Shown here: positions 9,008-49,673 of the stretch, piece by piece
How the letters are laid out: each line of letters begins with the position of its first letter
Numbering within the stretch: position 1 is the stretch's first letter
The notes under the pieces: generated by a model
Told to the model about the DNA's origin: nothing
The model's input: only the letters and a program-made list of their open reading frames with translations
Databases searched by the model: none
NCBI RefSeq assembly: GCF_022808915.1
Contig: NZ_JAKZFS010000006.1
Location: 62,001-126,000 of the forward strand
DNA from: Fundidesulfovibrio terrae
Lineage (GTDB): Bacteria; Desulfobacterota; Desulfovibrionia; Desulfovibrionales; Desulfovibrionaceae
DNA: 64,000 nt
Reading direction: 5' to 3'
Translations under genes and position numbers: made by a program

Positions 9008-9742
9008 ATGAACGACTCACCCGCCAGCCACCGTCCCTTCGAGACCCTGGGCGACGCGACCAGCGCGGCTTCCGGCCGCTTGGCCCGGCAGGTAGTGCTG
9101 CCGTTCGGCAAATCATTCGAGATCAGCGTCAAAAGCCTCAGGGTGCGCTTCTTCCGCTCGCTCATCACCGTCATGAGCCTGGTGCTGGCCGTGGCCTTCC
9201 TGGCCTTCACCCTGCTCGGGCACGACGTGGCCATGGGGCTTCTGGCCTCGGGGGATCCGTCGCTGCAGACCGACCTGGTCAAGGCCGGGTTCGACCTGGC
9301 TCCAGGGCGCTATCCCGGCAGCTACGAGGTTGCCTCCAGCGCCAAGGACCGCTGGATCGTCATCCTGTCGCTCCTGGTGTGCGCGGTGGGCATCGTCAAC
9401 GCCCAGCTCATGGCGGTGACTGAACGCTTCCGCGAGATCGGCACCATGAAGTGCCTGGGCGCGCTGGACAGCTTCGTGCTGCGCTTGTTCCTCCTGGAGG
9501 CGGGCATGCAGGGGCTGGCCGGGGCCCTGGCCGGGGCGGTGATCGGCGGCCTTGTGGGGCTTCTGGCCGGGGTTCTGCGCTTCGGCCTGCCGGCGCTCTA
9601 TCATCTGCACCTGGCCGACGCCGCGTCGAGCGTGGGCTGGTCGGTCCTGGTGGGCTTCGTCCTGAGCCTGATCGGGGTATCCTATCCGGCGCTGGTGGCC
9701 TCCCGGATGCCTCCGGTGGCGGCCATGCGGGCCGAGGAATGA
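9008..9742 (+). CDS. FtsX/MacB-like ABC transporter permease
   Basis: This 244-residue permease has the four-helix FtsX core. The first helix is at about residues 50-75 (FFRSLITVMSLVLAVAFLAF), a short periplasmic segment follows, then three helices to the C-terminus (IVILSLLVCAVGIVNAQLM, LFLLEAGMQGLAG, VGWSVLVGFVLSLIGVSYPALV). The cytosolic ERFREIGTMKCLGAL motif is the conserved coupling segment of FtsX domains. It lacks the large extracellular domain of MacB. Its partner ATPase follows after three bases. Such type VII ABC systems usually act mechanically on envelope substrates. The next large gene holds a second FtsX permease, so the transporter is probably a heterodimer. Confidence 0.85.
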   Translation: MNDSPASHRPFETLGDATSAASGRLARQVVLPFGKSFEISVKSLRVRFFRSLITVMSLVLAVAFLAFTLLGHDVAMGLLASGDPSLQTDLVKAGFDLAPGRYPGSYEVASSAKDRWIVILSLLVCAVGIVNAQLMAVTERFREIGTMKCLGALDSFVLRLFLLEAGMQGLAGALAGAVIGGLVGLLAGVLRFGLPALYHLHLADAASSVGWSVLVGFVLSLIGVSYPALVASRMPPVAAMRAEE

Positions 9743-9745
9743 ACC

Positions 9746-10486
9746 ATGGCTGAGAAGCACAGCATAGTCCGCGTATCGGGCGTCACCAAGTCATTCGAGC
9801 TTGGCAGGCTCACGGTCCAGGCCCTCAAGGGAGTGGACCTGTCCATCCACTCGGGGGAGTACCTGTCCATCATGGGGCCGTCGGGCTCGGGCAAGTCCAC
9901 GCTGTTCAACATGATCGGCGGCCTGGACAAGCCCACCACGGGCAAGGTGTTCATCGACGAGGTGGACATCGCCCAGTTGGACGCCTACGAGCTGGCCTGG
10001 CTCCGGAACCGCAAGATCGGCTACATTTTCCAGACGTTCAACCTCATCCAGGTGATGACCGCCCTGGAAAACGTCACCCTGCCCATGACCTTCGCGGGCG
10101 TGCCCGAGGACGAGGCCGCCGAGCGCGGCCTTGGCCTGCTCGGTCTCGTAGGGCTTCGCGAGCGCCACGCCCACAGGCCCATGGAACTCTCCGGCGGGCA
10201 GCAGCAACGCGTGGCCATCGCCCGCTCCCTGGCCAACAATCCGGCCATCGTGCTGGCCGACGAACCCACCGGCAACCTGGACCTGACCACCGGCGAGGAG
10301 ATCATCACCCTGCTCAAAAGCCTGAGCCGCGACCGGGGCGTGACCATCATCTCGGCCACTCACGATTACAAGATGCTCAACGTCTCCGACCGGGTGGTGT
10401 GGATACGCGACGGCCGCATCGACAAGATCGAGGAGCGCGACCAGCTCAAGATCACCCTGGGCGACATCGGGGCCAAGGAATACTGA
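9746..10486 (+). CDS. ABC transporter ATP-binding protein, LolD/MacB type
   Basis: This 246-residue ATPase has Walker [10 protein letters not shown], signature [15 protein letters not shown], Walker B IVLADEPTGNLD and the switch histidine in ISATHDYKML. The extended IDEVDIAQLDAYELAWLRNRKIGYIFQTFNLI stretch is typical of the LolD/MacB/FtsE group. These drive FtsX-type permeases for lipoprotein release, efflux or mechanotransmission. It lies three bases after one FtsX-like permease and 256 bp before a second, peptidase-fused one, and probably energises both. Confidence 0.93.
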   Translation: MAEKHSIVRVSGVTKSFELGRLTVQALKGVDLSIHSGEYLSIMGPSGSGKSTLFNMIGGLDKPTTGKVFIDEVDIAQLDAYELAWLRNRKIGYIFQTFNLIQVMTALENVTLPMTFAGVPEDEAAERGLGLLGLVGLRERHAHRPMELSGGQQQRVAIARSLANNPAIVLADEPTGNLDLTTGEEIITLLKSLSRDRGVTIISATHDYKMLNVSDRVVWIRDGRIDKIEERDQLKITLGDIGAKEY

Positions 10487-10742
10487 TGTCCTCCGCCCCA
10501 GAGCCATGCTGTAATAATTATGGGGGATTCCAAAGGGACCAGTCTCTAAGGCCTGGTGAGGCCTCCCCTGTCCAGGCCCCGTCGCGTGTACCAACTTATT
10601 TAAAGCGATACATGAGGAAAATGTTCTCAGGCGGTTCCTCTTTCAGGCAAGCAGCCCGAGCCAGCGCTTGTTTGCGCACCATGACCCCGCGCGCGGGCAT
10701 CATGCCCGCCGGTTGCGACTCCGGGCCAGGGCGGGCCTGCCC
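10487..10742 (+). other. Intercistronic gap with a hairpin
   Basis: This 256-bp gap lies between the ATPase gene and the giant peptidase-permease gene. It contains a perfect 7-bp inverted repeat (GGCCTGG/CCAGGCC, 10550-10556 with 10572-10578) without a T-run, so it is not an obvious terminator. The gap is somewhat AT-rich around 10590-10625. No gene or clear promoter was recognised. Confidence 0.4.
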
Positions 10743-13700
10743 GTGAAGCGCCTGGCCGCCCTGGCGTGGCTCCTGGCCCTTTCGGTGCTGTGCGCGTCTC
10801 CGTGCATGGCCAAGAAGGACAAGAACGCCGCGCCCAAGGCTGACCCCGCGCTCGTGGAGGCTTTCGGGCGGGATCCCGTAACCGTCCTGGCTTCCCTGGG
10901 CGACCGCTCAACGGGTTCGGAAGGGGCTGCCACGGCAGCCGGCGTCATCCAGGCGTGGTTCGAGAGCCTGGACCTGGGCACGGCGGGCCGCCAGCGGTTC
11001 GTGGTCCCAACCAAGCAGTACGGCCGTTGTTCGCTCACCGTGGGCTCCAAGTGCGCGGCCCTGCGCCCGGCCGATCTGAACGTGCTCACCCCTGCCGCCG
11101 CCGACGACATCGAAGGCGTGCTCATCGACGCGGGGCCCGGCGAGGTCTCCGACTTCAACGGCAAGGACGTGGCCGGGGCCATCGTGCTCATGGACCTGGA
11201 TTCCGGCAAGAACTGGATGAACGCGGCCCTCCTGGGCGCGCGCGCCGTGGTCTACGTGGACCGGCGCATCGGCGGCAAGCCGGCCAGCCGCGCCATGTTC
11301 CAGGACAAGCAGGAGCTCACCCCGGCCCTGTTCCCCAGGTACTACCTGGACGCCCAGACGGCGGCGCGGGAACTCTCGGGGCTCATTGGCTCCACGGCGC
11401 GGCTTTCGGCCGAGGCCGTCTGGAAGCCCAAGCTGGCCGACAACGTTTATCTGTTCGTGGAGGGCTCGGACCCGGCCCTGTCCAAGCAGATCCTCCTGGT
11501 GGAAGCCTTCTACGACAGCCAGGCGTACATTCCGGGCCTTTCTCCCGGCGCGGACGAAGCCTCGTCCATGGCGGTGCTGGCTCGGCTTGCGACGAAACTC
11601 CAGGCCGAGCGTCCCAAGCGCTCCGTGCTGCTTGCGGCCACTGCCGGGCATGCCCAGTCCCTGGCCGGGTGGCGCGATTTCCTGGCGGCCTTCCGGGCCA
11701 AGGGCAAGGAGCTGCGCACCATCCGCAAGGAGTACGCCGACAGGGCCGAGAACGCCTCCGCCGTGCTGGCCGCCCTGGGCAAGCCGGATGCAGCCCTGGA
11801 CGACCCGCTGCTGGGCCCGGCCCTGGAGACGGCCCTCAAAGATGAAGTGGACTCCGTGACCACCCGGCTCATGCGTCTGCGCCTGGGCGGGGAGGGCAGC
11901 CAAGAACAGGAACTGGCCGCGCTCACGGCGCGCCGCGCGGTGCTCCGGGGTTTGAGTTGGCGCGGCAATTTCACAGGTCTTAGCGAGGAAGAGGCGACGC
12001 TCATGCGCGGGCTGTTGCCCGGCGTGCGCGAACGCTACGAGGACATGGAAGCCGACGCCAAGCGCCAACTGGCCGCGGTGGAATCCTCCCGCGACCTGCG
12101 CCAGCTCGCCGGCGACGCGGACATCGCGGTGGCGGTCTCCCTGCACATCTCCAGCCACGGCGACGGGGTAGGGGCGGTAAGCGACGGATGGCTCTACGCG
12201 CTTAAGCCAGAGGTCAACCGGGTGCAGTCCTATTCCGGGCTTTCGGGTTTTCTGACCGACAAGGCCCGCGCCCTGGGCTACCCCAAGGACGACCTGCGCT
12301 TCGTCAACGGCCTGCGGACGGACCGCACCCGACCCTGGCGCAGTTATTTCCTGGATAATCCCCAACTGGGCGGCGAGGTGTCGGCGCTGGCCGGCTTTCT
12401 GGGCGTCAGCCTGGCCACGGTCAACGACGGGCGCTTCTTGTGGGGCACGCCCAGCGACATCCCCGAGCTGGTGGACCGCGAGAACCTTGCCCGCCAGGGC
12501 GAGCTGGCCTGCGGGCTGGTGTCGGCCCTGGCCGGTAGCGGTTTCGAGGCCCCGGACAATCCCCCGCGAAACGGTTTCGCCACGCTGACAGGGCGGGCCA
12601 AGTTCATCCGCCAGGGAGAACTCTTCCCGGACAGGGCCGCCTCGGGCACGGTGATGCTCGTCTACCAGGGCGACAGCCGCTACCTGGCCATGGCCGGTTC
12701 CGACGGCACGTTCCGGGTGGCCGGACTGGCCGATTCCCGGAACGTGCTGGACAAGGCCATCATCGAGGGCTACCGCTTCGCGCGCAAAAACGGCGAGGCC
12801 ATCTGGGCCGTGGACAAGAAGCAGACCGGCAAGGATGCCTACCGCGTGCGCCTGCGCCGCCTGGCCTCGGAGACCGACCTGGTCATGTTCTCCTGCCGCC
12901 AGAGCACGCTGTTCTCCATGTTCGACCCGCGCACCTTCCGGTATTTCACCAAGGTGGAGCTTCTCGACGGCAGGCGCGAGGCCGAGCCCGCGCGCTACTG
13001 GTTCTCCCGGCTGGACACCCTCAACTCCACCATGTTCAGCCTCTTCCTGGAGCCTTCCGCCACCTACAAGCTCATCCTCTCGGACACGGTACTGGCCCGG
13101 AAGATGATCCTGTTGGACTCCACCCCCGAGCACCCGGACGGCACCGGCTATTCCGTGGAGAAATGGCCCCTCCTGCCCTGGACCGAATACCACGCGGCCA
13201 GCGACATGTGGGACCTGTTGACCCCGAGGGTGAAGAATCTCGAGGACCACGGCATCTACAACGAACGCCTGCGGGAGATGCTTGAGACCGGCAAGGGAAT
13301 GCTGGCCAAGGCGTCCGAACTCAAGGGAGAAAAACGTTACGACGAGGCCCTGTCCCAGGCGCGGGCCTCCTGGGCCTTCGCCGCGCGGGTCTACAACGAC
13401 GTGGAGAAGACCCAGAAGGACGTGCTCATGGGCGTGCTCTTCTACATCGCCCTGTTCATCCCCTTCGCCTACTGCCTGGAGCGCCTGGTCTTCGCCTTCA
13501 CCGACATCCACAAACGGATCCTGGGATTCCTGGGCATCCTGACCACGGTCATCGCGATCATCTACAACGTCCACCCGGCCTTCAAGCTCACCTACAGCCC
13601 CATGGTGGTCATCCTGGCCTTCTTCATCATCGGGCTGGCCGTAATCGTGGGCTTCATCATCATCATGCGCTTCGAGCAGGAGATGGAGGAGCTGCAGCGC

Positions 13701-15545
13701 CGGGCCAAGCACGTCAAGGCTTCGGAGATCGGCAAGCTCAAGGCGTTCGCCGCCTCCTTCGCCATCGGCGTCACCAACCTGCGCCGCCGCAAGATCAGGA
13801 CCTCGCTCACCTGCGCCACTCTGGTCATCCTCACCTTCACCATCATGAGCTTCACCTCCGTGCGCAGCGCCCGGGTGGACCACGCGGTGAAGTTCTCGCC
13901 GACAAGCAACTACCAGGGCGTGCTGCTGAAAAACATTGGCTGGAAGACCCTGCCGGTTGAGGCGGAGAACGTCCTCTCGGACCAGGCCGGGCAAGGGCAG
14001 GCCGCGCCCCGCGCCGTGATCGAATCCAGGGACCGGGTGAGCCCCTTCGTCACCCAGGTGATTGGGCCCGCCAAACACGAAACCGTGCAGGGCGTCATGG
14101 GCCTGTCCTTCGCCGAACCGAAGGTCAGCGGCATGAACCGCATCCTCACCGCCGGACGCTGGTTCGCGGAGGGGGAGCGCAGGGCGGTGATCCTCCCCGA
14201 AGCAATGGCCAAGCGTCTCGGCGCGGGCCCCGGATCCAAGGTGACCATCTGGGGCGAGCCCTACGAGGTCGTGGGGCTCTTCGCGGGCAAGGAGCTCGAC
14301 CAGTTCACCGACCTGGACGGCGAAACGCTGACCCCCGTGACCTTCCCCAGCGAGACCGCCGTGGAAGTCACGGACACGGAAAAGGAGGCCATGGAGTCCG
14401 GCGAGGATGTCGTCAGCTACCAGGGCCGCTACCAGCACGTGCAGGGCGAGCAGGTGGCCATCCTGCCCTACGAGACGGTGATGAGCCTGGGGGGGCAGCT
14501 GAAAAGCCTGGCCGTGACGGCCAACGCCGCCCAGGACCTGGCCGACAAGCTGGCCGACCGCTTCGGCCTGACCATCTACGCCGGGCTGCCGGGCGGCACC
14601 TTCGTGCTCCAGTCGTCCGACACCATCAACTACGCCGGGGTGCCGAACATCATCGTGCCCCTGGCCATAGCCATGCTCATCGTGCTCTCCACCATGATCG
14701 GCGCGGTCTACGAGCGCAAACGCGAGATAGCCGTCTACACCGCCGTGGGCCTGGCCCCCACCCACGTCTCCTTCCTGTTCATCGCCGAGGCCCTGGCGTT
14801 TGCCGTGCTTTCGGCGGTGATGGGCTACCTTCTGGCCCAGACCGCCGCCGGGGTCCTTTCCGGCACGGCCATCTGGAAGGGCATGACCGCCAACTACAGC
14901 TCGCTTTCCGGCGTGGCCGCCATGGGGCTGGTCATCCTGGTGGTGCTGGTGTCAGTGATCTATCCCTCGCGCGTGGCGGCCAACATCGCCATCCCGGACG
15001 TGAACCGCTCCTGGACCTTGCCTGAGCCCCAGGGAAACACCATCAAGGCCACCTTGCCCTTCCTCATGCATATCCGCGAGCAGGACTGTGCGGGCGGTTT
15101 TTTGCTGGAGTATTACAAGGCGCATCATGATGTGTCGCACGGACTGTTTTCCACGGCCGAGGTCCGGCAGGATTTCGTCTGCCCCTGGAAGGCCCCGGGC
15201 GCCGGGCCGCATCCGGGCGAGCTGCACGGCGAGTTCTGTTCGCTGGACTCGTGCCTGCGCATCATGGCCAAGGTGTGGCTGGCGCCCTTCGATTTCGGCA
15301 TCAACCAGCAGGTGACCATTACCTTTTCGCCCGCCATGTGGCATCCGGGATACCTGGAGATCAATGTGGAGCTGACCCGCGAGGCGGGCGAGGCGGGCAT
15401 GTGGAAGCGCCTCAACAAGGGCTTCCTGGACGACTTGCGCAAGCAGATGCTGGTGTGGCGCTCCCTGGACGAGGAGCGGCGCACCTCCTACGAGGCCAGC
15501 GTGGACACCAGCATGAAAAACCCCGAAGCCGCGGGGCCGCCCTGA
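10743..15545 (+). CDS. Giant M28-peptidase-like / FtsX permease fusion protein
   Basis: About 1600 residues. I start at the GTG at 10743 because a clean signal peptide (KRLAALAWLLALSVLCASPCMA) follows. A PA-like insert (GKDVAGAIVLMD...ARAVVYVD) comes next, then an M28-type fold at about residues 245-320 (ILLVEAFYDSQ...GADEASSMAVLARL). The usual HxD and D-D/N zinc ligands look lost, so peptidase activity is doubtful. A carboxypeptidase-regulatory-like beta domain lies near residues 620-690. Three membrane helices (about 900-985) follow, then an FtsX core starting near NLRRRKIRTSLTC with its large extracytoplasmic loop and terminal helices. A cytosolic domain of about 170 residues closes the protein. 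It probably forms the second half-permease for the upstream ATPase, with a periplasmic substrate-handling module. Confidence 0.75.
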   Translation: MKRLAALAWLLALSVLCASPCMAKKDKNAAPKADPALVEAFGRDPVTVLASLGDRSTGSEGAATAAGVIQAWFESLDLGTAGRQRFVVPTKQYGRCSLTVGSKCAALRPADLNVLTPAAADDIEGVLIDAGPGEVSDFNGKDVAGAIVLMDLDSGKNWMNAALLGARAVVYVDRRIGGKPASRAMFQDKQELTPALFPRYYLDAQTAARELSGLIGSTARLSAEAVWKPKLADNVYLFVEGSDPALSKQILLVEAFYDSQAYIPGLSPGADEASSMAVLARLATKLQAERPKRSVLLAATAGHAQSLAGWRDFLAAFRAKGKELRTIRKEYADRAENASAVLAALGKPDAALDDPLLGPALETALKDEVDSVTTRLMRLRLGGEGSQEQELAALTARRAVLRGLSWRGNFTGLSEEEATLMRGLLPGVRERYEDMEADAKRQLAAVESSRDLRQLAGDADIAVAVSLHISSHGDGVGAVSDGWLYALKPEVNRVQSYSGLSGFLTDKARALGYPKDDLRFVNGLRTDRTRPWRSYFLDNPQLGGEVSALAGFLGVSLATVNDGRFLWGTPSDIPELVDRENLARQGELACGLVSALAGSGFEAPDNPPRNGFATLTGRAKFIRQGELFPDRAASGTVMLVYQGDSRYLAMAGSDGTFRVAGLADSRNVLDKAIIEGYRFARKNGEAIWAVDKKQTGKDAYRVRLRRLASETDLVMFSCRQSTLFSMFDPRTFRYFTKVELLDGRREAEPARYWFSRLDTLNSTMFSLFLEPSATYKLILSDTVLARKMILLDSTPEHPDGTGYSVEKWPLLPWTEYHAASDMWDLLTPRVKNLEDHGIYNERLREMLETGKGMLAKASELKGEKRYDEALSQARASWAFAARVYNDVEKTQKDVLMGVLFYIALFIPFAYCLERLVFAFTDIHKRILGFLGILTTVIAIIYNVHPAFKLTYSPMVVILAFFIIGLAVIVGFIIIMRFEQEMEELQRRAKHVKASEIGKLKAFAASFAIGVTNLRRRKIRTSLTCATLVILTFTIMSFTSVRSARVDHAVKFSPTSNYQGVLLKNIGWKTLPVEAENVLSDQAGQGQAAPRAVIESRDRVSPFVTQVIGPAKHETVQGVMGLSFAEPKVSGMNRILTAGRWFAEGERRAVILPEAMAKRLGAGPGSKVTIWGEPYEVVGLFAGKELDQFTDLDGETLTPVTFPSETAVEVTDTEKEAMESGEDVVSYQGRYQHVQGEQVAILPYETVMSLGGQLKSLAVTANAAQDLADKLADRFGLTIYAGLPGGTFVLQSSDTINYAGVPNIIVPLAIAMLIVLSTMIGAVYERKREIAVYTAVGLAPTHVSFLFIAEALAFAVLSAVMGYLLAQTAAGVLSGTAIWKGMTANYSSLSGVAAMGLVILVVLVSVIYPSRVAANIAIPDVNRSWTLPEPQGNTIKATLPFLMHIREQDCAGGFLLEYYKAHHDVSHGLFSTAEVRQDFVCPWKAPGAGPHPGELHGEFCSLDSCLRIMAKVWLAPFDFGINQQVTITFSPAMWHPGYLEINVELTREAGEAGMWKRLNKGFLDDLRKQMLVWRSLDEERRTSYEASVDTSMKNPEAAGPP

Positions 15546-15640
15546 TGACGGTCGGGCGATCGGCGGCCGCCGCCCCCGGTGGGCGCGGCATTGGCGGCCC
15601 GGCTGACGGGCGGCGATAAGACAGAAGGCGCGAGACGAGC

Positions 15641-17620
15641 ATGGAACACAGTCCGATACGGCCACGCGCGATCATTCTGGGGGTGCTCTCCGGTGCGCTC
15701 CTGTGTTTGGCCACGCCCTACAACAACATGTACCTGGCGGCCACGCCGCTGGGGGGCGGGCATTTCCCCCTGGCCCCCTTCATCCTGCTTACGTGCCTCA
15801 CCGTGCTTGTGGCCCTCATCGCGCGCATCACCCGGTCCGGCCCGCTGCTCAGCGGCGCGGAGCTCCTGACCACCTGGATGCTGGCCGTGGTGGTCTCGGG
15901 CATCGCCTACACCGGGCTCATGCGCACGCTCCTCATCAACCTCACCGCTGTGGAGCACTTCGCCTCCTCGGGCAACCGCTGGTCCGAAACCCTGGCCCCG
16001 CTCATCCCCGGGGGGTGGACCGTCACCGACTCCAAGGCCGTGGATCTTCTCTACAACGGCCTGCCTGGCGGGCGCAGGCTCTCCTGGCTGGAGATACTTC
16101 AGAACATCCCCTGGAGCGCCTGGGCCGGTCCCATGGCCGCATGGGGCGTATTCATCCTTTTGTGCTTCCTGGTGATGATCTGCCTGGTGAACCTCTTCAG
16201 CAGGCAGTGGATCGTAAACGAGCGCATGAACTTCCCGCTCCTGCGCCTGCCCTACATCATGGAGGAGTCCTTCCAGGGGGGCCGAGTGGGGGGATTCTTT
16301 TCCGACCGCTTCCTGCTGGCCGGGCTGCTGGTCCCCGTGGCGCTGCACCTGGTCAACGGGCTTTCGGTGTACATCCCCACCATCCCCCAGGTGCCAACGG
16401 TGCTGCTGGCCGGGCCGTATTTCGCCAAGACCGGCCTGTTTTCCGGCTTCACCAAGCTGAAGCTCTATTTCATCCCGGCCTACATCGGCTTCGCCTTCCT
16501 GACCTCGCGCCAGATATCGCTGTCCTTCTGGGCCTTCTTCATCATGGGCGGATTCTTGACGGGCATCCTGTCCATGGTTGGCTACCAGGTGCCCCCGTCG
16601 GCCCTGGGCGTCACTTTCGGCCCCACCCTGACCATGGCCGAGGAGACCCAGATGGTCGGGGCCTATGGCGTGTTCTTCCTGTTCATCGTCTGGCTCTCCA
16701 GGGACCACCTCAAGGACGTGCTGCGTTCGGCCTTCAGCACCCGGCCCGCTCCGGCCCGGGAGTCGGAATGGTTCTCCTCCCGCCTGGCTTTCTGGGGGCT
16801 GGTGCTGGGCGGACTCGGGCTCACGGCCTGGTGCCGGATGTTCGGCATGCCGCTTCTGGTGTCCATGCTGCTTCTGGGAGTGTTCTTCGTCGTGCTGCTG
16901 GTTGCCACCCGGGTTATCTGCCAGGGCGGCATCGCCTACTTCACCCTGACCGCCGCGCCTACCGACGGCCTGCTGTCCCTGTTCGGTTCGGGTTTCTTCA
17001 CCAACGCCGGGCTGATCATGGGCGTGATCATGCAGAAGGTGCAGTTCCTGGACCTGCGCGAGTCGCTCATGCCCTCGCTTCTGCACGCGGCCAAGGTGGG
17101 CGAGCCGGTGTCCCGCAAGAGGCTCTATTTCTTCGGGATCTGCCTGGCGTTGGGCGTTGGCGTGGTGGCTTCCTTCGTGGCCATGCTGGCCTTGTGCCAC
17201 AAGGTTGGCGTGCGCGACTTGCAGGCCGAGTGGGAGGTATCCTCGGTGCTGCGGATATACGAGGAGTCGAGCAAGCTCCTGGACGCACCCTCGGGGCCCA
17301 ACACCTGGATCGTTATCTTCGCCTCGGTGGGCGCGGCGGTGATGCTCGCCCTGGTGCTGTGCTTCCAGCGTTTCTACTGGTGGCCGCTGCATCCGGTGGG
17401 CTACCTGACCATGTACAGCTCGGCCATGCGCATCCTGTGGTTCAGCTTCTTTTTGGGCTGGCTGTGCAACCACGTGACCCTGCGCTACGGCGGCATCGAA
17501 CTGTTCCGCAGGGTGCGGATGTTCTTCATCGGCCTCATACTGGGGGATTTCCTCATGGGCGGCGCGTTCGCCGTGGTGGGCCTTTACATGGGCCAGAGCT
17601 ACCAGGTGCTGCCCTCGTGA
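15641..17620 (+). CDS. Polytopic OPT-like membrane protein (DUF6785-type)
   Basis: A 659-residue integral membrane protein with about 12-14 hydrophobic segments throughout and no soluble domain. The NERMNFPLLRLPYIMEES loop and the overall plan resemble a family I recall as DUF6785, distantly related to oligopeptide transporters (OPT). It is followed after 21 bp by a second such protein, so the two probably act as a pair. Both lie downstream of the ABC ATPase and the giant FtsX fusion in the same direction. The substrate is unknown. Transport of peptides or an envelope polymer is possible but not shown by the sequence. Confidence 0.65.
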   Translation: MEHSPIRPRAIILGVLSGALLCLATPYNNMYLAATPLGGGHFPLAPFILLTCLTVLVALIARITRSGPLLSGAELLTTWMLAVVVSGIAYTGLMRTLLINLTAVEHFASSGNRWSETLAPLIPGGWTVTDSKAVDLLYNGLPGGRRLSWLEILQNIPWSAWAGPMAAWGVFILLCFLVMICLVNLFSRQWIVNERMNFPLLRLPYIMEESFQGGRVGGFFSDRFLLAGLLVPVALHLVNGLSVYIPTIPQVPTVLLAGPYFAKTGLFSGFTKLKLYFIPAYIGFAFLTSRQISLSFWAFFIMGGFLTGILSMVGYQVPPSALGVTFGPTLTMAEETQMVGAYGVFFLFIVWLSRDHLKDVLRSAFSTRPAPARESEWFSSRLAFWGLVLGGLGLTAWCRMFGMPLLVSMLLLGVFFVVLLVATRVICQGGIAYFTLTAAPTDGLLSLFGSGFFTNAGLIMGVIMQKVQFLDLRESLMPSLLHAAKVGEPVSRKRLYFFGICLALGVGVVASFVAMLALCHKVGVRDLQAEWEVSSVLRIYEESSKLLDAPSGPNTWIVIFASVGAAVMLALVLCFQRFYWWPLHPVGYLTMYSSAMRILWFSFFLGWLCNHVTLRYGGIELFRRVRMFFIGLILGDFLMGGAFAVVGLYMGQSYQVLPS

Positions 17621-17641
17621 CGGGCGTCGCAGGCGGGTGAC

Positions 17642-19597
17642 ATGTACGACGACAAGGAACTCAAGGAATACCGCGATCTTCTGGAAGCCCCGGCCCATTT
17701 CGAGGAGGGGTTCGACTGGAAGACCATCGCCGGAGCCATCTTCATCGGCTTTTTGATGATGCCGGGCTCCATGTACCTGAACCTGGTGATCGGCGCTGGG
17801 ATCGGCCCGGCCGCGCGCTGGGTGACCATCATCCTCTTCGCCGAAATCGCCAAGCGCGCCTACACCGACCTCAAGCAGCAGGAGGTCTTCCTGCTCTATT
17901 ACATGGCCGGAGCGGCCATGCACTCGCCCTTCCAGGGGCTTTTGTGGAACCAGTACCTCGTCCAGTCCGACGCGGCCAAGATGCTCGGGCTCACGGAGTA
18001 CATCCCCTCCTGGGTGGCCCCGGCCATGGGGTCGCAGTCGTTCGTGGAGAGGACCTTCCTGCACCGCGACTGGCTCATGCCCATCCTGCTGCTCGTCGGC
18101 TCGCAGATCGTGCAGCGGGTGGACCATTTCGGGCTGGGCTACGCCCTGTACCGCATCACCTCCGACGTGGAGAAGCTGCCGTTCCCCATGGCCCCGGTGG
18201 GGGCGCTGGGCACCATGGCCCTGGCCGAATCGGCCGAGGAGCGCAAGACCGGCTGGAAATGGCGGGTATTCTCCATCGGCGGGGTGATCGGCATCCTGTT
18301 CGGATCGGTTTACGTGCTCTTTCCGGTGCTCTCGGGGCTCATCTTCACGGAACCGGTGCGCCTGATCCCCATTCCCTGGATCGATCTCACCCGGCATACC
18401 GAGGATGTGATGCCCGCCGTGGCCACGGGCCTGCAGCTGGACCTGGGGCTGGTGTTCACGGGCATGGTGCTGCCGTTCTGGGCGGTGATCGGCGGGCTCA
18501 TCGGGCAGATCATCACCTTCATCGCCAACCCCATCCTCTACGAGCACGGCGTCCTGCACCGCTGGCACAAGGGCATGGGCACCGTGGACACGGTGTTCGC
18601 CAACAACTTCGACTTCTACCTGAGTTTCGGCCTGGGCCTGGGCCTGGCCATCGGCGTCATCGGCATCTGGCAGGTGGCGAAGAGCCTGCGCAAGGGCGCG
18701 GGCGGGGTGGACTACCGCGAGGTGTTCAGGAGCCACCCCAGCCGGGGCGACATCAATTTCTGGGTGTCCATAGCCATCTACGTGGTCTCCACGCTGTCCT
18801 ACGTGCTTTTCTGCCTGTGGCTGGTGCCGGACTTCCCGTGGATATTCTTCGTGCTCTACGGCTTCGTGTACACGCCGGTGATCTCCTACATCACCGCACG
18901 CATGGAGGGCATCGCGGGCCAGTTCGTGAGCCTGCCGCTGGTACGCGAGGCGAGCTTCATCGCGGGGGCGAAATTCTTCGGCTACCATGGCATCGAGATC
19001 TGGTACGCGCCCATCCCCATCCACAACTACGGCAAGGCCACCGTGGACTTCCGCGAGATCGAGCTCACCGGAACCAGCCTGCGCGGGGTCATCAAGGCCG
19101 AATTCGTGGTGTTCCCCGTGGTGATGATCGCAAGCCTGCTCTTCTCGCAGTTCATCTGGCAGCTGGCCCCGCTGCCCTCGGCCGCCTATCCCTACGCCCA
19201 GCAGTTGTGGCACCTCCAGGCGCTCAACAGCCTGCTCATGCAGACATCCACCCTTGAGGGCAACTCGCTCTTCTTCCAGGCCCTGAACGGGAGCTACCTT
19301 GGGGCGGGCCTGGGGCTCGGGCTCGTCACCTACGCGGCGCTCAACGCCTTCGGCCTGCCGGTGCTTCTGGTGTACGGCATCGTGCGGGGCCTGGGCCAGC
19401 ACATCCCCCATGGGCTGGTGCTCGAGGTGATCGGCGCGTTTCTGGGGCGTTATTATTTCCACAAGAAATACGGGAAGATGTGGCGTCAGTACGCGCCGGT
19501 GCTGTTGGCCGGGTTCTCCTGCGGCATGGGGCTCACGGGCATGTTCGCCATGGGCTGCACGCTTATATTGAAGAGCCTGGGGAAACTGGCGTATTGA
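17642..19597 (+). CDS. Polytopic OPT-like peptide-transporter-related membrane protein
   Basis: A 651-residue integral membrane protein with a short cytosolic N-terminus (DDKELKEYRDLLEAPAHFEEG) and many membrane segments starting with WKTIAGAIFIGFLMMPGSMY. Glycine-rich helices such as LSFGLGLGLAIGVIGIW and the loop VDHFGLGYALYRITSDVEKL suggest an OPT-like fold (DUF6784/OPT group by recall). It ends the five-gene membrane cluster. Paired OPT-like proteins beside an FtsX-type ABC transporter are an unusual context. The direction and substrate of transport cannot be inferred. Confidence 0.65.
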   Translation: MYDDKELKEYRDLLEAPAHFEEGFDWKTIAGAIFIGFLMMPGSMYLNLVIGAGIGPAARWVTIILFAEIAKRAYTDLKQQEVFLLYYMAGAAMHSPFQGLLWNQYLVQSDAAKMLGLTEYIPSWVAPAMGSQSFVERTFLHRDWLMPILLLVGSQIVQRVDHFGLGYALYRITSDVEKLPFPMAPVGALGTMALAESAEERKTGWKWRVFSIGGVIGILFGSVYVLFPVLSGLIFTEPVRLIPIPWIDLTRHTEDVMPAVATGLQLDLGLVFTGMVLPFWAVIGGLIGQIITFIANPILYEHGVLHRWHKGMGTVDTVFANNFDFYLSFGLGLGLAIGVIGIWQVAKSLRKGAGGVDYREVFRSHPSRGDINFWVSIAIYVVSTLSYVLFCLWLVPDFPWIFFVLYGFVYTPVISYITARMEGIAGQFVSLPLVREASFIAGAKFFGYHGIEIWYAPIPIHNYGKATVDFREIELTGTSLRGVIKAEFVVFPVVMIASLLFSQFIWQLAPLPSAAYPYAQQLWHLQALNSLLMQTSTLEGNSLFFQALNGSYLGAGLGLGLVTYAALNAFGLPVLLVYGIVRGLGQHIPHGLVLEVIGAFLGRYYFHKKYGKMWRQYAPVLLAGFSCGMGLTGMFAMGCTLILKSLGKLAY

Positions 19598-39649: not shown

Positions 39650-40186
39650 GTGGAAGACCCCAACTTGCCGGATAACGGGCAACCCGGGATGAATGGAGAA
39701 GCCCGTCGCGTCGCCGCAGCGGACCGGCTTCCCGGCATCCGCCGGATGTCCATCTGGCTGATGCTTTTGTGGTCGCTGCTGTCCCTGGGGTTCTATCCTT
39801 ACTTCTGGCTCGGGCTGCGGGCGAAGCATTTCAACAGGTTGCATTCGAACGCGAAAGTGAAGGTCACCCCCATCGTTTTCGCGGCCGTGGCTTCGACCGT
39901 CACGCCCTTTTTCATGGAACCTCTCCCGGACGTGCCCCCGACCCTCGGCTTCGCGATATGCGTGGCGGCCCAGCTCATCTTCTGGGGCAGCCTCGCGTGG
40001 TTCTATCTCCAGTTCTTCAATGCCAGGCGGGCCATGATGGATCATCTGGCCGCTTTCGACACCCCGGAAGAGAATTATTCCCGGATAAGCGCCCTGTGGA
40101 CGTTCCTGTTCGTCAATCTTTACCTCCAGTTCCGCATCAACTGGGCCGTGACCGGGGACGAACAGGAGCCTGCGGGAAAGGCGTAA
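39650..40186 (+). CDS. DUF4234-like membrane protein
   Basis: 178 residues from a GTG preceded by GAGGAA; the ATG at 39689 is an alternative. The core (IRRMSIWLMLLWSLLSLGFYPYFWLGLRAKHFNRL) is typical of DUF4234: a helix, then Gly-x-Tyr-Pro and an amphipathic segment. Two further helices follow (VTPIVFAAVASTVTPFF and GFAICVAAQLIFWGSLAWFYLQ), and a last hydrophobic stretch precedes the end. Function is unknown. It has an unusual AT-rich upstream region with 19-bp-spaced repeats. An Smr-domain gene follows 87 bp later. Confidence 0.65.
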   Translation: MEDPNLPDNGQPGMNGEARRVAAADRLPGIRRMSIWLMLLWSLLSLGFYPYFWLGLRAKHFNRLHSNAKVKVTPIVFAAVASTVTPFFMEPLPDVPPTLGFAICVAAQLIFWGSLAWFYLQFFNARRAMMDHLAAFDTPEENYSRISALWTFLFVNLYLQFRINWAVTGDEQEPAGKA

Positions 40187-40273
40187 GTCCCCGCTCCTCC
40201 CGGAGAAGGGCCGGAGCCTTCCAGGCGGCCGGGCGGCGTTGCAATCCGGACCGAGTCAGGCTAGCACCGCCGC

Positions 40274-40984
40274 ATGTCCAAGAAAGACGACTTCAACAAT
40301 CCCTTCGACCAGCTCAAAGGCTTGAAGCTCAAGAAGCTGAAGCCCGCCGCCCCGGCCCCTGCGCCCAAACCAGCCAAGGCCGCCGAACAGGCCCCGGCCG
40401 ACGAGGAGGACCTGTTCGCCAGGGCCATGTCCGGCGTCGACCGCATGGGCAAGGCCGCAACCGGCAGGCAGGTGGCCGCCCAGGTGCGGCCGGCGCAGCC
40501 GGTGGCGTCCGATCCGGATGCCGAGGCCCGGGCCATGCTGCAGGACCTGGTGTCCGGCAAGGTGGAGTTCGAGTTGGAGTACACGGACGAATACGTGCAG
40601 GGATTCGTCAAGGGAACGGACCAGAAGATTTTTCGCCAGCTCAAGGCCGGGCAGTATAGCCCGGAGGCGCACCTGGACCTGCACGGCCTCAACGCCGAGC
40701 AGGCTTACGAGTCGCTGCTCGTGTTCACGCGGGAGAAATACATGCAGGGCAAGCGCTGCCTGCTGCTTATCCCCGGCCGGGGCATCAACTCGCCGGGCGG
40801 CATGCCGGTGCTGAAGGAAGAGCTGAAAAGCTGGCTCACGCGCGATCCCCTGAAAAGGGTGGTGCTGGCCTTCTGCACTGCCCAGCCGCGCCACGGCGGG
40901 GCCGGAGCGCTCTACGTGCTGCTTAGGCAGCGCAAGAAGACCGAAGGCAAGATCAAGTGGGAGAACCTGTGGGGGGACGATTGA
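40274..40984 (+). CDS. Smr-domain protein
   Basis: 236 residues. The N-terminal 90 are low-complexity, rich in Lys, Ala and Pro (KPAAPAPAPKPAKA), and probably disordered. A C-terminal Smr domain holds LDLHGLNAEQAYESL and the LLIPGRGINSPGG loop, with KRVVLAFCTAQPRHGGAGALYVLL at the end. Smr domains are small nucleases or nucleic-acid binders related to the MutS2 C-terminus. LDLHG and GRG are the conserved motifs, so activity is plausible. It is the last GC-rich gene before the AT-rich island. Confidence 0.88.
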   Translation: MSKKDDFNNPFDQLKGLKLKKLKPAAPAPAPKPAKAAEQAPADEEDLFARAMSGVDRMGKAATGRQVAAQVRPAQPVASDPDAEARAMLQDLVSGKVEFELEYTDEYVQGFVKGTDQKIFRQLKAGQYSPEAHLDLHGLNAEQAYESLLVFTREKYMQGKRCLLLIPGRGINSPGGMPVLKEELKSWLTRDPLKRVVLAFCTAQPRHGGAGALYVLLRQRKKTEGKIKWENLWGDD

Positions 40985-41030
40985 GTGAGTAAAGCTGCAA
41001 CTGGCTATATCCGTTATGGTTAGTAGCTAA

Positions 41031-41049
41031 AAGTAGGGTGCCCCTACTT
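41031..41049. promoter_or_regulatory. Operator-like inverted repeat before the AT-rich gene pair
   Basis: A perfect 8-bp inverted repeat AAGTAGGG-TGC-CCCTACTT lies five bases upstream of the candidate -35 element. There is no T-run, so it is more like a binding site than a terminator for the Smr gene that ends 47 bp earlier. Confidence 0.5.
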
Positions 41050-41053
41050 GTGG

Positions 41054-41081
41054 TTGCAATAAATATTTGTAAAAATATATT
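41054..41081 (+). promoter_or_regulatory. Candidate promoter of the AT-rich gene pair
   Basis: TTGCAA, a 16-base spacer and TATATT form a near-consensus housekeeping promoter in a very AT-rich stretch. It lies about 50 bases before the ATG at 41133, which has an AAGGATG ribosome-binding site. Confidence 0.6.
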
Positions 41082-41132
41082 TTTTGGAGACTGGGTGATC
41101 ATTTCAGTCACGTGTAGCATAAGGATGACTTT

Positions 41133-41894
41133 ATGTTTACTGGAAGCATGACGTATTATCATGGCACGACAACATATGCATGGGATAGCATTCGAAGTGA
41201 TAGAGTATTTCGCCCTGATAAACAGAAGGCAGACGGTGAATATTGGACAGCAAAGGGCGTGTATTTTTCTTGCAGCAATCCATATGTTGCGTTATGGTAT
41301 GCACATTTTAGGTGTTTTTTGCTTGGGAAGGACGGTATTGAAAGTAGCCCTGTAGTAATAACATTTGAGAAGGCGATTGATGATGAATCAGATGTGGTTA
41401 ACCTGCTGACATCTGATGGTCAAAGGGTTTTGTTTAAAATGCACAACAGGTTAAAGCCAGTTCATTCTGCTACTAAAAATGCGGTTACGATTAATACAAA
41501 CTTAGATGCTCTGGCTTTGAAGCATTTGCCAGATATGGAAGATGTTGAAAATATATGCGTTTTTTCTGCATTTCAAGAGGGTGAAAGCTTTCAAAAGATT
41601 GTTCATGGCCATGATTTTGTCAATGAATATATAAATGATAGAGTAGGATTTTGTGTAGGTGACAACGTGTCTGTTTGCTTTCTAGATGATGTTCCTCTTT
41701 TGAGTCTTGGAGATTATAAGGTTCTAACATCTGACCACATTCTTGATGAAGATATGGCGCATGGTGAGAATGCTTTGTTTCCTGTTATTTGCCAGGGATT
41801 GAATAACAAACTACTGGCAGGTAAGTTTGCAAAAAGTTCAAAAGCAGTTGGTCTCCACGATTATTTTTTGGAGGTTTGTCATGCGAAGAACTAA
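41133..41894 (+). CDS. Putative ADP-ribosyltransferase-fold protein (possible toxin/defence effector)
   Basis: 253 residues encoded in markedly AT-rich DNA with codon use unlike its neighbours. The N-terminus MTYYHGTTTYAWDSIRSD gives a YHGT motif (His10), followed by KGVYFSCSNPYVALWYA (Tyr44). This matches the first two signatures of the PARP/DUF3990-like ADP-ribosyltransferase fold, H..Y..., which bind NAD. The third catalytic residue is not clear; candidates lie in the DFVNEYINDRVGF or DNVSVCFLDD region. There is no signal peptide or membrane segment. It overlaps the next gene by 14 bases, so the products are made together. An NAD-consuming or target-modifying toxin is inferred, not shown. 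It could also be an unrelated fold with a chance HGT motif. Confidence 0.55.
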   Translation: MFTGSMTYYHGTTTYAWDSIRSDRVFRPDKQKADGEYWTAKGVYFSCSNPYVALWYAHFRCFLLGKDGIESSPVVITFEKAIDDESDVVNLLTSDGQRVLFKMHNRLKPVHSATKNAVTINTNLDALALKHLPDMEDVENICVFSAFQEGESFQKIVHGHDFVNEYINDRVGFCVGDNVSVCFLDDVPLLSLGDYKVLTSDHILDEDMAHGENALFPVICQGLNNKLLAGKFAKSSKAVGLHDYFLEVCHAKN

Positions 41895-42666
41895 AAATTT
41901 ACTGAGTAAGATTGATGATTATTTCGAAAATAATTATCAAGATACAATTTTTCTAAATCACTTGTATGCAATCAGAACTGTTCAGCGTATTAATACGAAC
42001 TACAAATTTATAATTAATAAGTTGATAAAGACTGAGGATGACTTGGTTTTTAAGCGGTATCTTTCTCGTAATCAATTAAAGACTTTTGTTGACAAGATAT
42101 CTGTTGCTACAAAAGGCGTGAAGAAAATTTTAACTAATAGACTGATTAGTTCTATTGAAAAGTGTGACGTCGATGATCTTTCTTGTAGGGTCAACGTTTT
42201 TCAATTGATTGGAGCAAATGGAAGGGCAGAGAGTTTTGATTTTCTTGGGGCGTTGGAGCATGATATCAAGTCTCAACATGCTACATTAAAATTTTCTTAT
42301 TTGAATATTTCTGTTTACAAATCTAAAGCTCCATATGAGACTGTTGAACAAATTTTTTGCGAACTAGATAATAATGACAAGCTTAGGCGGTTTTATTTTA
42401 GTTATTTGCGTTATTATTATAAAGGTGTGGATAATATTTTCAAGCGATTTAGTGAGAGTGTTCAGGATAACCATAAGAAACAAATTGCAGTTCTTTTTCC
42501 GGCTCTCGATACTGTTTTAAGGCAGCATCGTTATAAATCAGAAATTCAAGGAAATTTACTCAGGCATCACGATTTCTTTGCCAAAGCATTGGGTGCTGCG
42601 CCATCAGAAGTTGCTGTAAGATTTGAAAATTCTTTTGATAATATTCACGACAAAGGCGTTGCATAA
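41881..42666 (+). CDS. Unknown protein, partner of the ART-like gene
   Basis: 261 residues from an ATG with a GGAGG site inside the end of the upstream gene. It is mostly helical, basic and aromatic-rich (KIDDYFENNYQDTIFLNHLYAI, RRFYFSYLRYYYKGVDNIFKRF), with no signal peptide or membrane helix. I recognise no domain. Base composition is as AT-rich as the upstream gene, so both arrived together. The tight overlap suggests a functional pair: an antitoxin, a sensor or a second effector subunit. Its size is large for a classical antitoxin, which favours a sensor or co-effector. Confidence 0.6.
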   Translation: MRRTKNLLSKIDDYFENNYQDTIFLNHLYAIRTVQRINTNYKFIINKLIKTEDDLVFKRYLSRNQLKTFVDKISVATKGVKKILTNRLISSIEKCDVDDLSCRVNVFQLIGANGRAESFDFLGALEHDIKSQHATLKFSYLNISVYKSKAPYETVEQIFCELDNNDKLRRFYFSYLRYYYKGVDNIFKRFSESVQDNHKKQIAVLFPALDTVLRQHRYKSEIQGNLLRHHDFFAKALGAAPSEVAVRFENSFDNIHDKGVA

Positions 42667-42933
42667 CTCTTCTGCCTTATTGCGATTTATAAGAACGGTC
42701 AGAGAGTGACTTTTATCCCTGGATTTTGTTTTTTTATTTTTTTGTTTAGAATTTAACGATCATGCCGTAGTGGGACCTGATTTTTAAAGCTCCCCTCTTT
42801 AGGTTTGCATCTCGGGCTCCCATTTCTCTCTGTCCTTAAGGAACACCGGGATAGCCTTGGGGCCGTCAAGAATGAAAAAAGGACGCCCTGTTGCAGAAAC
42901 GTCCCTGAATCTTACTCAATCATCTACTGTCTT
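42667..42933. other. AT-rich right flank of the island
   Basis: 267 bp without a recognised gene. It includes a long T-rich run (about 42725-42750) that could end plus-strand transcripts from the ART-like pair. GC content returns to normal near 42800-42850. No tRNA, integrase or clear direct repeat marks the boundary. Confidence 0.5.
42875..42904 (-). terminator. Terminator of the MAF-type gene
   Basis: On the minus strand GGACG-loop-CGTCC is followed by T6. It lies about 30 bases after the stop at 42934. The stem is short (5 bp) with a 14-base loop, so the call is moderate. Confidence 0.55.
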
Positions 42934-49425: not shown

Positions 49426-49560
49426 GGTTTTCCTCCCGTGCCGGGGTGCTAGTAGAAATTCACGGCTGAGGCAAGAGGACGGGCGTCTTGAGTTTTGCGG
49501 TGAGCGGGCCTAGTGTCGCGCGGTTTTGCGGGAGGGGAGAGTGCAGAAGGGGGATGAAGA

Positions 49561-49600
49561 GGCCTCCGGCGGCCAAAGGGACGGGGTCCCTTTGGAATCC
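49561..49600. repeat. REP-like palindromic element
   Basis: GGCC-TCCGGC-GGCC (49561-49574) is followed directly by CCAAAGGGAC-GGG-GTCCCTTTGG (49573-49595, a perfect 10-bp stem). It lies in the gap between hisH and the divergent saposin-like gene. Layout and wording match intergenic palindromes typical of Desulfovibrio-type genomes and resemble the element at 47070. Confidence 0.55.
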
Positions 49601-49673
49601 CCTACAGCTTCGCGCCGGTTGATGGGCGTGCGGCAGGGAAAATGAGAAAATCTGGAAAATTTGAGGTTTGGTC

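What the first reader, a model, noticed from the sequence alone, without database searches (positions are those of the whole stretch)
9008..19597. Five-gene cluster linking an FtsX-type ABC transporter, a peptidase-like giant permease and two OPT-like membrane proteins
Seen: five co-directional genes with short gaps (3, 256, 95 and 21 bp). They encode a small FtsX permease, a LolD/MacB-like ATPase, a 1600-residue signal-peptide/PA/M28-like/FtsX fusion and two polytopic proteins. Known: FtsX-type ABC systems act on periplasmic partners, and OPT proteins move peptides. A combined system of this kind is not one I know as characterised. Inferred: it may be an envelope machine that captures or processes a peptide-like substrate and moves it through the OPT-like pair.
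Basis: partly seen in the sequence, partly recalled or inferred. Interest (0 to 1): 0.75.

Follow-up and report, generated by a model that had tools for sequence, protein, structure and literature searches.

The report
ABC machine paired with OPT-like transporters
Five neighbouring genes in a Desulfovibrio-type bacterium, together with two partner genes that lie elsewhere in its genome, look like parts of one undescribed cell-envelope transport machine that combines an ATP-driven motor with a pair of membrane proteins shaped like peptide and metal-chelate transporters.

Summary
The five genes are real, with the stated gaps (3, 256, 95, 21 bp), and belong to one system. Full-length homologues of the giant and of DUF6785 occur in the same 62 of 149 class genomes; P5 (the fifth protein) is full-length in 61 of these, the miss lying at a contig end. 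Of 48 named loci with enough upstream DNA, 44 have all five in order. Eight distinct genomes with split genes still carry the giant and DUF6785.

Two more components lie outside the window: a PqqD-like protein in exactly those 62 genomes, and a ~298-aa family of unknown domain in the 62 plus 10 others. In L127 all seven lie in one compact run.

DUF6785 (confident model) and P5 (weak model) resemble barley YS1 (OPT fold), though neither matches Pfam's OPT profile. The giant's M28 domain has lost most residues aligned to metal/catalytic positions, so it is probably a binding domain. Its partner FtsX subunit lacks a periplasmic domain.

Best reading: an OPT-fold pair moves a substrate across the inner membrane while an asymmetric type VII ABC unit drives capture or hand-over. 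Substrate, direction and physical contact are inferred. The library searched showed no paper on it.

The parts
9008..9742 (+). Small FtsX permease (FtsXs, 244 aa): one TM segment, a loop of about 45 aa, then the C-terminal FtsX TM bundle; no periplasmic core domain
   Evidence: PF02687 5.4e-15 over residues 117-236; hydrophobic segments 51-71, 116-136, 148-189, 206-226
9746..10486 (+). LolD/MacB-like ABC ATPase (246 aa); Walker [10 protein letters not shown], signature [15 protein letters not shown] and a His in the switch region readable in the sequence
   Evidence: PF00005 9.2e-35; LolD model 225.3 bits, cut-off 307.75; sequence
10487..10742 (.). Insertion of about 253 bp between ATPase and giant, absent from the four congeners whose junction was read
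   Evidence: Junction comparison with L040, L041, L042, L044
10743..15545 (+). Giant subunit (1600 aa): signal peptide, periplasmic PA + pseudo-M28 region and a further region to about residue 890, three extra hydrophobic segments (about 893-974), FtsX/MacB unit (about 1006-1426), conserved C-terminal part of about 170 aa, probably cytosolic
   Evidence: Pfam; PDB profile hits 2ek8 8.7e-14 and MacB 5lil 6.1e-9; hydrophobic segments and residue counts; alignment A3
10818..12572 (+). Pseudo-M28/PA region of the giant (about residues 26-610); Y257, D271, H303/A304 and G568 lie at positions aligned to M28 metal/catalytic residues; only D271 fits
15641..17620 (+). DUF6785+DUF6784 membrane protein (659 aa), OPT/YSL fold
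   Evidence: PF20581 4e-161; model pLDDT 91.4, pTM 0.91; YS1 7wst E 9.8e-8; YS1 7wsr Z 22.3, rmsd 4.1, 549 aligned
17642..19597 (+). P5: second OPT-fold membrane protein (651 aa), most conserved component, conserved N-terminal segment MYxDKELKEYRDLL
   Evidence: 276 invariant of 659 columns in 63 sequences; consensus; model pLDDT 59.8, pTM 0.60; YS1 7wsr E 4.2e-6, Z 13.2, rmsd 5.0, 502 aligned

Best explanation
A single inner-membrane machine of at least seven proteins. The two OPT-fold proteins (DUF6785 and P5) probably pair as a heterodimer, as YS1 forms a homodimer, and carry a substrate across the inner membrane by an elevator-like movement. FtsXs, the ATPase and the giant form an asymmetric type VII (MacB/LolCDE-like) ABC unit that does not itself form the pore. 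It turns ATP cycles into movement of the giant's periplasmic part, whose dead M28 domain serves as a binding and gating receptor (as in nicastrin or transferrin receptor, recalled) that receives or presents the substrate at the OPT pair. The PqqD-like protein holds the peptide-like part of the substrate in the cytoplasm; the ~298-aa protein assists. I lean towards export or hand-over of a peptide-derived, possibly sugar-bearing product made in the cytoplasm. Shown here: co-inheritance as one system, the predicted folds, the changed M28 residues, the unequal FtsX subunits. Inferred: heterodimer, physical contact of ABC and OPT parts, direction, substrate.
For: Giant and DUF6785 in identical sets, 62 of 149 class genomes; PqqD-like in the same 62; P5 full-length in 61 of them (sets compared). 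Four genera (g6, g8, g31, g36) hold genomes with and without the system, and giant, DUF6785 and PqqD-like go together in them. Phylum sample: DUF6785 over its cut-off and P5 in the same 28 of 395. Order conserved across families. Giant found in 11 of 11 handles chosen for incomplete loci (10 distinct genomes). PqqD-FtsXs-ATPase-giant-DUF6785-P5-u298 in one co-directional run in L127. An 87-bp P5 relic beside the deacetylase gene in G049, which has no full-length giant, no DUF6785 and no PqqD-like hit: a probable deletion scar. OPT folds. Pseudo-M28. Own-genome PqqD domain 1.7e-11, above cut-off. YS1 is a homodimer for which an elevator-like mechanism is proposed (passages of PMC9691689). YbbAP-TesA is a type VII ABC proposed to extract membrane compounds for a periplasmic hydrolase (passages of PMC12646458).
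Against: No experiment and no predicted complex. The P5 model is weak (pLDDT 59.8), and Z 13.2 is near the level the tool warns about for helical proteins. Neither OPT-fold protein matches Pfam OPT. In 6 distinct genomes the giant is not beside DUF6785 (in G252 it is about 12 kb away on one contig), and in four of these the ATPase was seen beside the giant, so the ABC and OPT parts behave as two modules whose link need not be physical. FtsXs and ATPase were followed only by gene order, not by genome-wide counts. Known OPT/YSL proteins are importers (recalled; YS1 in PMC9691689), against the export leaning. PqqD-like domains need not bind the transported substrate.
Confidence: 0.5

Rival explanations
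1. Two separate machines in one pathway: the ABC unit extracts or hands over a membrane-bound glycolipid or lipoprotein (as LolCDE does and YbbAP is proposed to do) and the OPT pair separately flips or takes up a precursor. They are kept together by the pathway, not by contact.
For: Type VII ABC systems often act on lipid-like substrates (PMC12646458 passages). Upstream neighbours in many loci are glycosyltransferases, a DUF2334/polysaccharide-deacetylase-like enzyme and a histidine phosphatase. ABC and OPT genes lie apart in 6 distinct genomes.
Against: The deacetylase is not obligate: strong hits (E below 1e-80) in 45 of the 62 genomes and in 2 without the system, so a fixed glycan substrate is doubtful. 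The compact seven-gene run in L127 does not favour separate units but does not exclude them.
Confidence: 0.3
2. Uptake system for a metal chelate or oligopeptide: the pseudo-M28 domain catches it in the periplasm and the OPT pair imports it with protons, the ABC unit acting as a gate.
For: OPT/YSL fold; the nearest solved structure takes up Fe(III)-phytosiderophore (PMC9691689 passages). Profile hits of the M28 region include receptors (transferrin receptor, nicastrin).
Against: I recognised no outer-membrane receptor, chelate synthesis or metal regulator among the recurrent neighbours, but only ten were scanned with Pfam and the rest only seen as sequences. A PqqD-like partner is unexpected for uptake.
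Confidence: 0.15
3. Sensing or resistance system like BceAB: the ABC unit detects or removes an antimicrobial peptide and the OPT proteins are accessory.
For: FtsX-type permease with LolD-like ATPase. A PAS/histidine-kinase-like gene (named by eye) recurs in 12 of the 143 loci clustered.
Against: No kinase family recurs in most loci. One copy per genome and a very slowly changing P5 are unlike the patchy, multi-copy spread usual for resistance genes (recalled).
Confidence: 0.045
4. Chance neighbours with no common function.
For: Only the physical splits in some genomes.
Against: Identical presence in 62 and absence in 87 genomes, retention when split, conserved order.
Confidence: 0.005

Closest known systems
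Type VII ABC systems: LolCDE, MacAB-TolC, FtsEX-EnvC, YbbAP-TesA
   Same: LolD-like ATPase, FtsX-type permeases, MacB-like periplasmic core in the giant
   Different: Strongly unequal pair (1600-aa subunit with pseudo-M28 and three extra hydrophobic segments against a 244-aa subunit without a periplasmic domain); constant OPT-fold and PqqD-like companions; below the LolD and LolCE cut-offs
OPT/YSL transporters (barley YS1, 7wsr/7wst)
   Same: Overall fold over 549 residues for DUF6785 and 502 for P5
   Different: 10-12 percent identity, no Pfam OPT hit, two dissimilar proteins instead of one, inherited together with an ABC unit
M28 aminopeptidases and the relatives nicastrin and transferrin receptor
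   Same: Profile match over the PA and M28 regions
   Different: Fused to an FtsX permease; of the positions checked only one Asp fits. That nicastrin and transferrin receptor are inactive is recalled.
PqqD / RiPP recognition element proteins
   Same: PF05402 domain above cut-off in the own-genome copy; PDB profile hits to a lasso-peptide chaperone and PqqD
   Different: Extra N-terminal part of about 70 residues; the copy tested is below the NCBIfam PQQ and lasso cut-offs

Membership tests
Type VII ABC transporter | LolD/MacB-type ATPase with intact nucleotide-binding motifs | tested here: met
   PF00005 9.2e-35; best models LolD and MacB; motifs read by eye in the sequence
Type VII ABC transporter | Two FtsX-type permease units | tested here: met
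   PF02687 in FtsXs and giant
Type VII ABC transporter | MacB-like periplasmic core domain in the permease | tested here: met
   PF12704 2.8e-8 in the giant; no such hit in FtsXs
LolCDE (specific system) | Scores over the curated LolD/LolCE cut-offs | tested here: not met
   LolD 225.3 against 307.75; LolCE 35.9 (FtsXs) and 18.6 (giant) against 362.45
OPT family | Match to the Pfam OPT profile | tested here: not met
   No such hit reported at E up to 1 for either protein
OPT family | OPT/YSL fold, DUF6785 | tested here: met
   Z 22.3, rmsd 4.1, 549 aligned; next 6.1; Foldseek E 9.8e-8
OPT family | OPT/YSL fold, P5 | tested here: inconclusive
   Best match by far (Z 13.2, rmsd 5.0, 502 aligned; next 6.4; Foldseek E 4.2e-6), but on a model of pLDDT 59.8
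OPT family | Proton-coupled transport of peptides or metal chelates | not testable with these tools
   needs transport assays
M28 peptidase | Sequence relation | tested here: met
   PDB profile hit 2ek8 8.7e-14; Pfam M28 22.2 bits against a cut-off of 21.3
M28 peptidase | Metal ligands and catalytic Glu (positions recalled, aligned to 2ek8) | tested here: not met
   Position 257: Y55 F3 L1; 304: no Glu in 59; 303: H33 K11 and others, 3 not shown; 568: no His in 59; D271 kept in 57 of 59; the third ligand region was not aligned
PqqD / RRE | PF05402 over cut-off | tested here: met
   44.7 bits against 23.4 in the own-genome copy
PqqD / RRE | Binds the leader of a precursor peptide | not testable with these tools
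   no precursor gene identified

The most novel reading that the evidence does not exclude
A new class of bacterial transport machine in which a heterodimeric OPT-fold transporter is physically driven or gated by an asymmetric type VII ABC unit carrying a pseudopeptidase receptor, serving a PqqD-bound, peptide-derived (possibly glycosylated) product found across many families of Desulfobacterota.
Probability: 0.4. Interest if true: 0.9.

Novelty: categorically new. Interest (0 to 1): 0.74.

Why it matters
The type VII ABC systems named in the paper I saw (FtsEX-EnvC, LolCDE-LolA, MacAB-TolC, YbbAP-TesA) have other kinds of partner. A constant pairing with OPT-fold transporters would be a new way to couple ATP hydrolysis to a secondary transporter. 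It would also give a role to DUF6785/DUF6784 and to a highly conserved protein family without a name in Pfam or NCBIfam, and it points to an undescribed PqqD-dependent product in sulfate-reducer relatives. The seven-gene parts list makes the question directly testable by deletion and co-purification.

Tried and rejected
Sequence homology between DUF6785 and P5, or of either with the giant: none by profile-profile comparison (E 0.16-0.34); only the fold links the pair to OPT. Sequence search of the PDB with the P5 and DUF6785 profiles: no hit at E up to 1; with the u298 profile one hit at E 0.95, taken as chance. Search of plasmid records with P5 and DUF6785: no match. Glycan genes as core parts: rejected for the deacetylase (55 of 149 genomes at E up to 0.001; of 47 with E below 1e-80, 45 have the system and 2 do not); the glycosyltransferases and the ~206-aa protein were not profiled across genomes. 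A further conserved neighbour round the u298-PqqD pair where it lies away from the five genes: beyond the pair itself, the widest families that looked like real genes (by eye) reached 11 of 20 loci and looked like general genes such as motility and carboxylase genes. A repeat as source of the 256-bp insertion: only a 44-bp, 79.5 percent match elsewhere in the window. Other phyla could not be tested: the one genome-contig scan found 287 relatives of P5 and kept the best 80, so restriction to Desulfobacterota is not claimed. Promoters and terminators: not above shuffled expectation. VIA-align rows below YS1 (CLC, MFS and others, Z 6.4 or less) were not followed. Literature: no paper for DUF6785 or for DUF6784/PF20581/PF20580/IPR046712. 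Combined-term searches were seen as listings only, four of them cut (15 of 18, 15 of 21, 8 of 30, 20 of 86 shown); nothing shown was on this system by title or abstract. Of papers, I saw passages of PMC12646458 and PMC9691689 only.

P5's OPT fold is now marked inconclusive. The number of genomes with giant and DUF6785 apart is 6, not 7.
Full report
What is there. They encode a small FtsX permease (FtsXs), a LolD/MacB-like ATPase, a 1600-aa giant, a DUF6785+DUF6784 protein and a 651-aa protein with no Pfam or NCBIfam family, called P5 here. In the four congeners whose junction was read, the giant's ATG begins one base after the ATPase stop; in the window about 253 bp are inserted there and the start is GTG. 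The large gap thus looks like a local event, not a sign of two ancestral operons.

One system. Among 149 genomes of the class (this one included), the full-length giant occurs in 62 and DUF6785 in 62. The sets are identical, as is the set of a PqqD-like protein (compared). One search tallied 98 genomes with any match; the other 36 had only weak matches, those listed lying in the FtsX part, and were dropped. In G137 DUF6785 is in two overlapping pieces. P5 is full-length in 61 of the 62; the exception, G022, has its DUF6785 gene about 460 bases from the contig end (L069). One further P5 match, in G049, is an 87-bp relic. In a phylum sample of 395 genomes DUF6785 passes its cut-off in 28 (a 29th match, G149, is below it) and P5 occurs in the same 28. 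These genomes are related, so the counts are not independent. However, four genera (g6, g8, g31, g36) hold genomes with and without the system, and giant, DUF6785 and PqqD-like go together in them. FtsXs and the ATPase belong to families with many members per genome and were followed by gene order only.

Order. I fetched the loci of 40 of the 62 class genomes: all 40 have FtsXs-ATPase-giant-DUF6785 and 39 have P5. From the phylum sample I fetched 24 loci (28 genomes less four of this family): 17 have all five; L124, L129 and L141 are cut by contig ends; L120, L126, L137 and L138 are split. Of 80 titled contigs found with P5 (best 80 of 287 relatives), 48 have at least 8.9 kb upstream; 44 of these have all five in order, two lack a detected FtsXs, one has only DUF6785+P5 and one only P5. 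The 32 shorter ones were left out of that count, and some of these genomes are also in the other two sets. In the incomplete cases the parts are elsewhere: the giant in 11 of 11 handles (10 distinct genomes, G433 and G529 giving identical coordinates), DUF6785 in 9 of 9 handles (8 distinct), P5 on another contig in G220. In 6 distinct genomes the giant is not beside DUF6785 (G433, G394, G252, G528, G530, G531). The ATPase lies beside the giant in the loci held for G433, G394, G530 and G531 but was not seen in that of G528; for G252 no such locus was held. In G527 and G531 the giant is found in pieces.

Two more components. In 143 clustered loci, recurrent neighbours were a PqqD-like protein (43), a ~298-aa protein, u298 (58), a ~206-aa protein with an N-terminal hydrophobic segment (40), and, upstream, a GT28-type glycosyltransferase (47), a DUF2334/polysaccharide-deacetylase-like enzyme (41), a histidine phosphatase (17) and GT4 glycosyltransferases (15) (families). 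The PqqD-like protein tracks the system exactly. u298 is in all 62 genomes and in 10 others. In the window's genome the pair lies on another contig, G000:C1:1270602-1271865, and the PqqD domain there scores 44.7 bits against a cut-off of 23.4. In 20 loci where the pair lies away from the five genes, the two are adjacent on the same strand in 20; in G119 they are far apart. In the distant locus L127 all seven genes run in one direction with gaps of at most 128 bp: PqqD-FtsXs-ATPase-giant-DUF6785-P5-u298. In G049 the deacetylase, a GT4, the histidine phosphatase and u298 remain, no full-length giant, DUF6785 or PqqD-like gene was found, and a 29-codon relic of P5 (E 4.3e-6) sits just after the deacetylase: a probable deletion scar. 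The sugar genes are not obligate: of 47 genomes with a strong deacetylase hit, 45 have the system and 2 do not.

Anatomy. DUF6785 gives a confident model (pLDDT 91.4, pTM 0.91) whose only matches at E up to 0.001 are the two barley YS1 entries: E 9.8e-8, probability 1.00; Z 22.3, rmsd 4.1, 549 residues, next best 6.1. P5 gives a weak model (pLDDT 59.8, pTM 0.60) that also has YS1 on top: E 4.2e-6; Z 13.2, rmsd 5.0, 502 residues, next best 6.4. The two show no sequence homology to each other and no Pfam OPT match. P5 is the most conserved part: mean pairwise identity 0.78 and 276 invariant columns (63 sequences), against 0.51 for DUF6785 (63), 0.45 for the giant (59), 0.76 for the ATPase (59) and 0.54 for FtsXs (49); sequences below 85 percent coverage or 90 percent length were dropped. 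In the 10 loci with a DnaJ match longer than 300 aa, P5 is more similar to the window's copy than DnaJ in all 10.

The giant's N-terminal region matches M28 aminopeptidases with their PA domain (2ek8, 8.7e-14) and also transferrin receptor and nicastrin. In 59 aligned sequences the positions aligned to M28 ligands and general base (recalled) read Tyr/Phe/Leu for His at 257, mostly His or Lys at 303 and never Glu at 304 for Glu-Glu, and never His at 568; only the bridging Asp (D271) stays, in 57 of 59. The third ligand region was not aligned. The giant then has three extra hydrophobic segments, an FtsX/MacB unit and a conserved C-terminal part. FtsXs has the FtsX bundle and almost no periplasmic part. 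The ABC unit is therefore strongly asymmetric, if the two form a pair. Topology is from hydropathy only.

How it may work. YS1 is a homodimer with a proposed elevator-like mechanism (PMC9691689, passages), so DUF6785 and P5 may form a heterodimer. Type VII ABC systems relay ATP-driven motion to periplasmic domains; YbbAP is proposed to extract membrane compounds and present them to a bound hydrolase (PMC12646458, passages). My model puts the dead M28 domain where that hydrolase would be, as a receptor. The PqqD-like partner suggests a peptide held in the cytoplasm; with the sugar genes in many loci it makes me lean to export or hand-over of a modified peptide. The direction of known OPT proteins argues for import. 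I put about 0.9 on one obligate system, 0.5 on the OPT-plus-ABC mechanism and about 0.3 on a peptide-derived substrate.

Known or not. The parts belong to known folds, but no described system joining them was found: no paper for DUF6785 or DUF6784/PF20581/PF20580/IPR046712, and nothing on it by title or abstract in the listings. The library lacks most subscription papers. I rate the system categorically new because I know of no kind of system that joins a type VII ABC unit to OPT-fold transporters (recalled, beyond these searches); its function is unproven.

Noticed in passing
window 10487-10742 and 49559-49602: Insertion of about 253 bp between ATPase and giant, absent from four congeners; a 44-bp piece has a 79.5 percent match on the other strand at 49559-49602.
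   Followed up: partly
window 40001-44000: G+C falls to 0.50-0.51 against 0.61-0.70 in the other 2-kb blocks, possibly a horizontally acquired stretch.
   Followed up: no
L127:731-1669: A radical SAM/SPASM gene lies on the other strand next to the PqqD-like gene of the seven-gene run; whether it tracks the system was not tested.
   Followed up: partly
L063:12638-13543 and four other loci: A Methyltransf_24 gene (only the L063 copy tested) lies between FtsXs and ATPase in L063; 5 loci share the family.
   Followed up: partly
L259 (G049), between the deacetylase (ends 8862) and u298 (starts 10985): Probable deletion scar: a 29-codon P5 relic just after the deacetylase gene, with a histidine-kinase-like ORF (named by eye) between it and u298.
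   Followed up: yes
Downstream of P5 in many titled loci, e.g. L145, L164, L165, L181: SpoIIE phosphatase, cyclic-nucleotide-binding, STAS-like and anti-sigma-kinase-like genes recur (34, 28, 23 and 19 loci; the first two confirmed by Pfam in one copy each, the others by eye); all but SpoIIE are mostly on the opposite strand.
   Followed up: no
G018, G019, G024, G049, G050, G067, G068, G078, G090, G091: Ten class genomes carry u298 without full-length giant, DUF6785 or PqqD-like protein, so u298 may have another role.
   Followed up: partly
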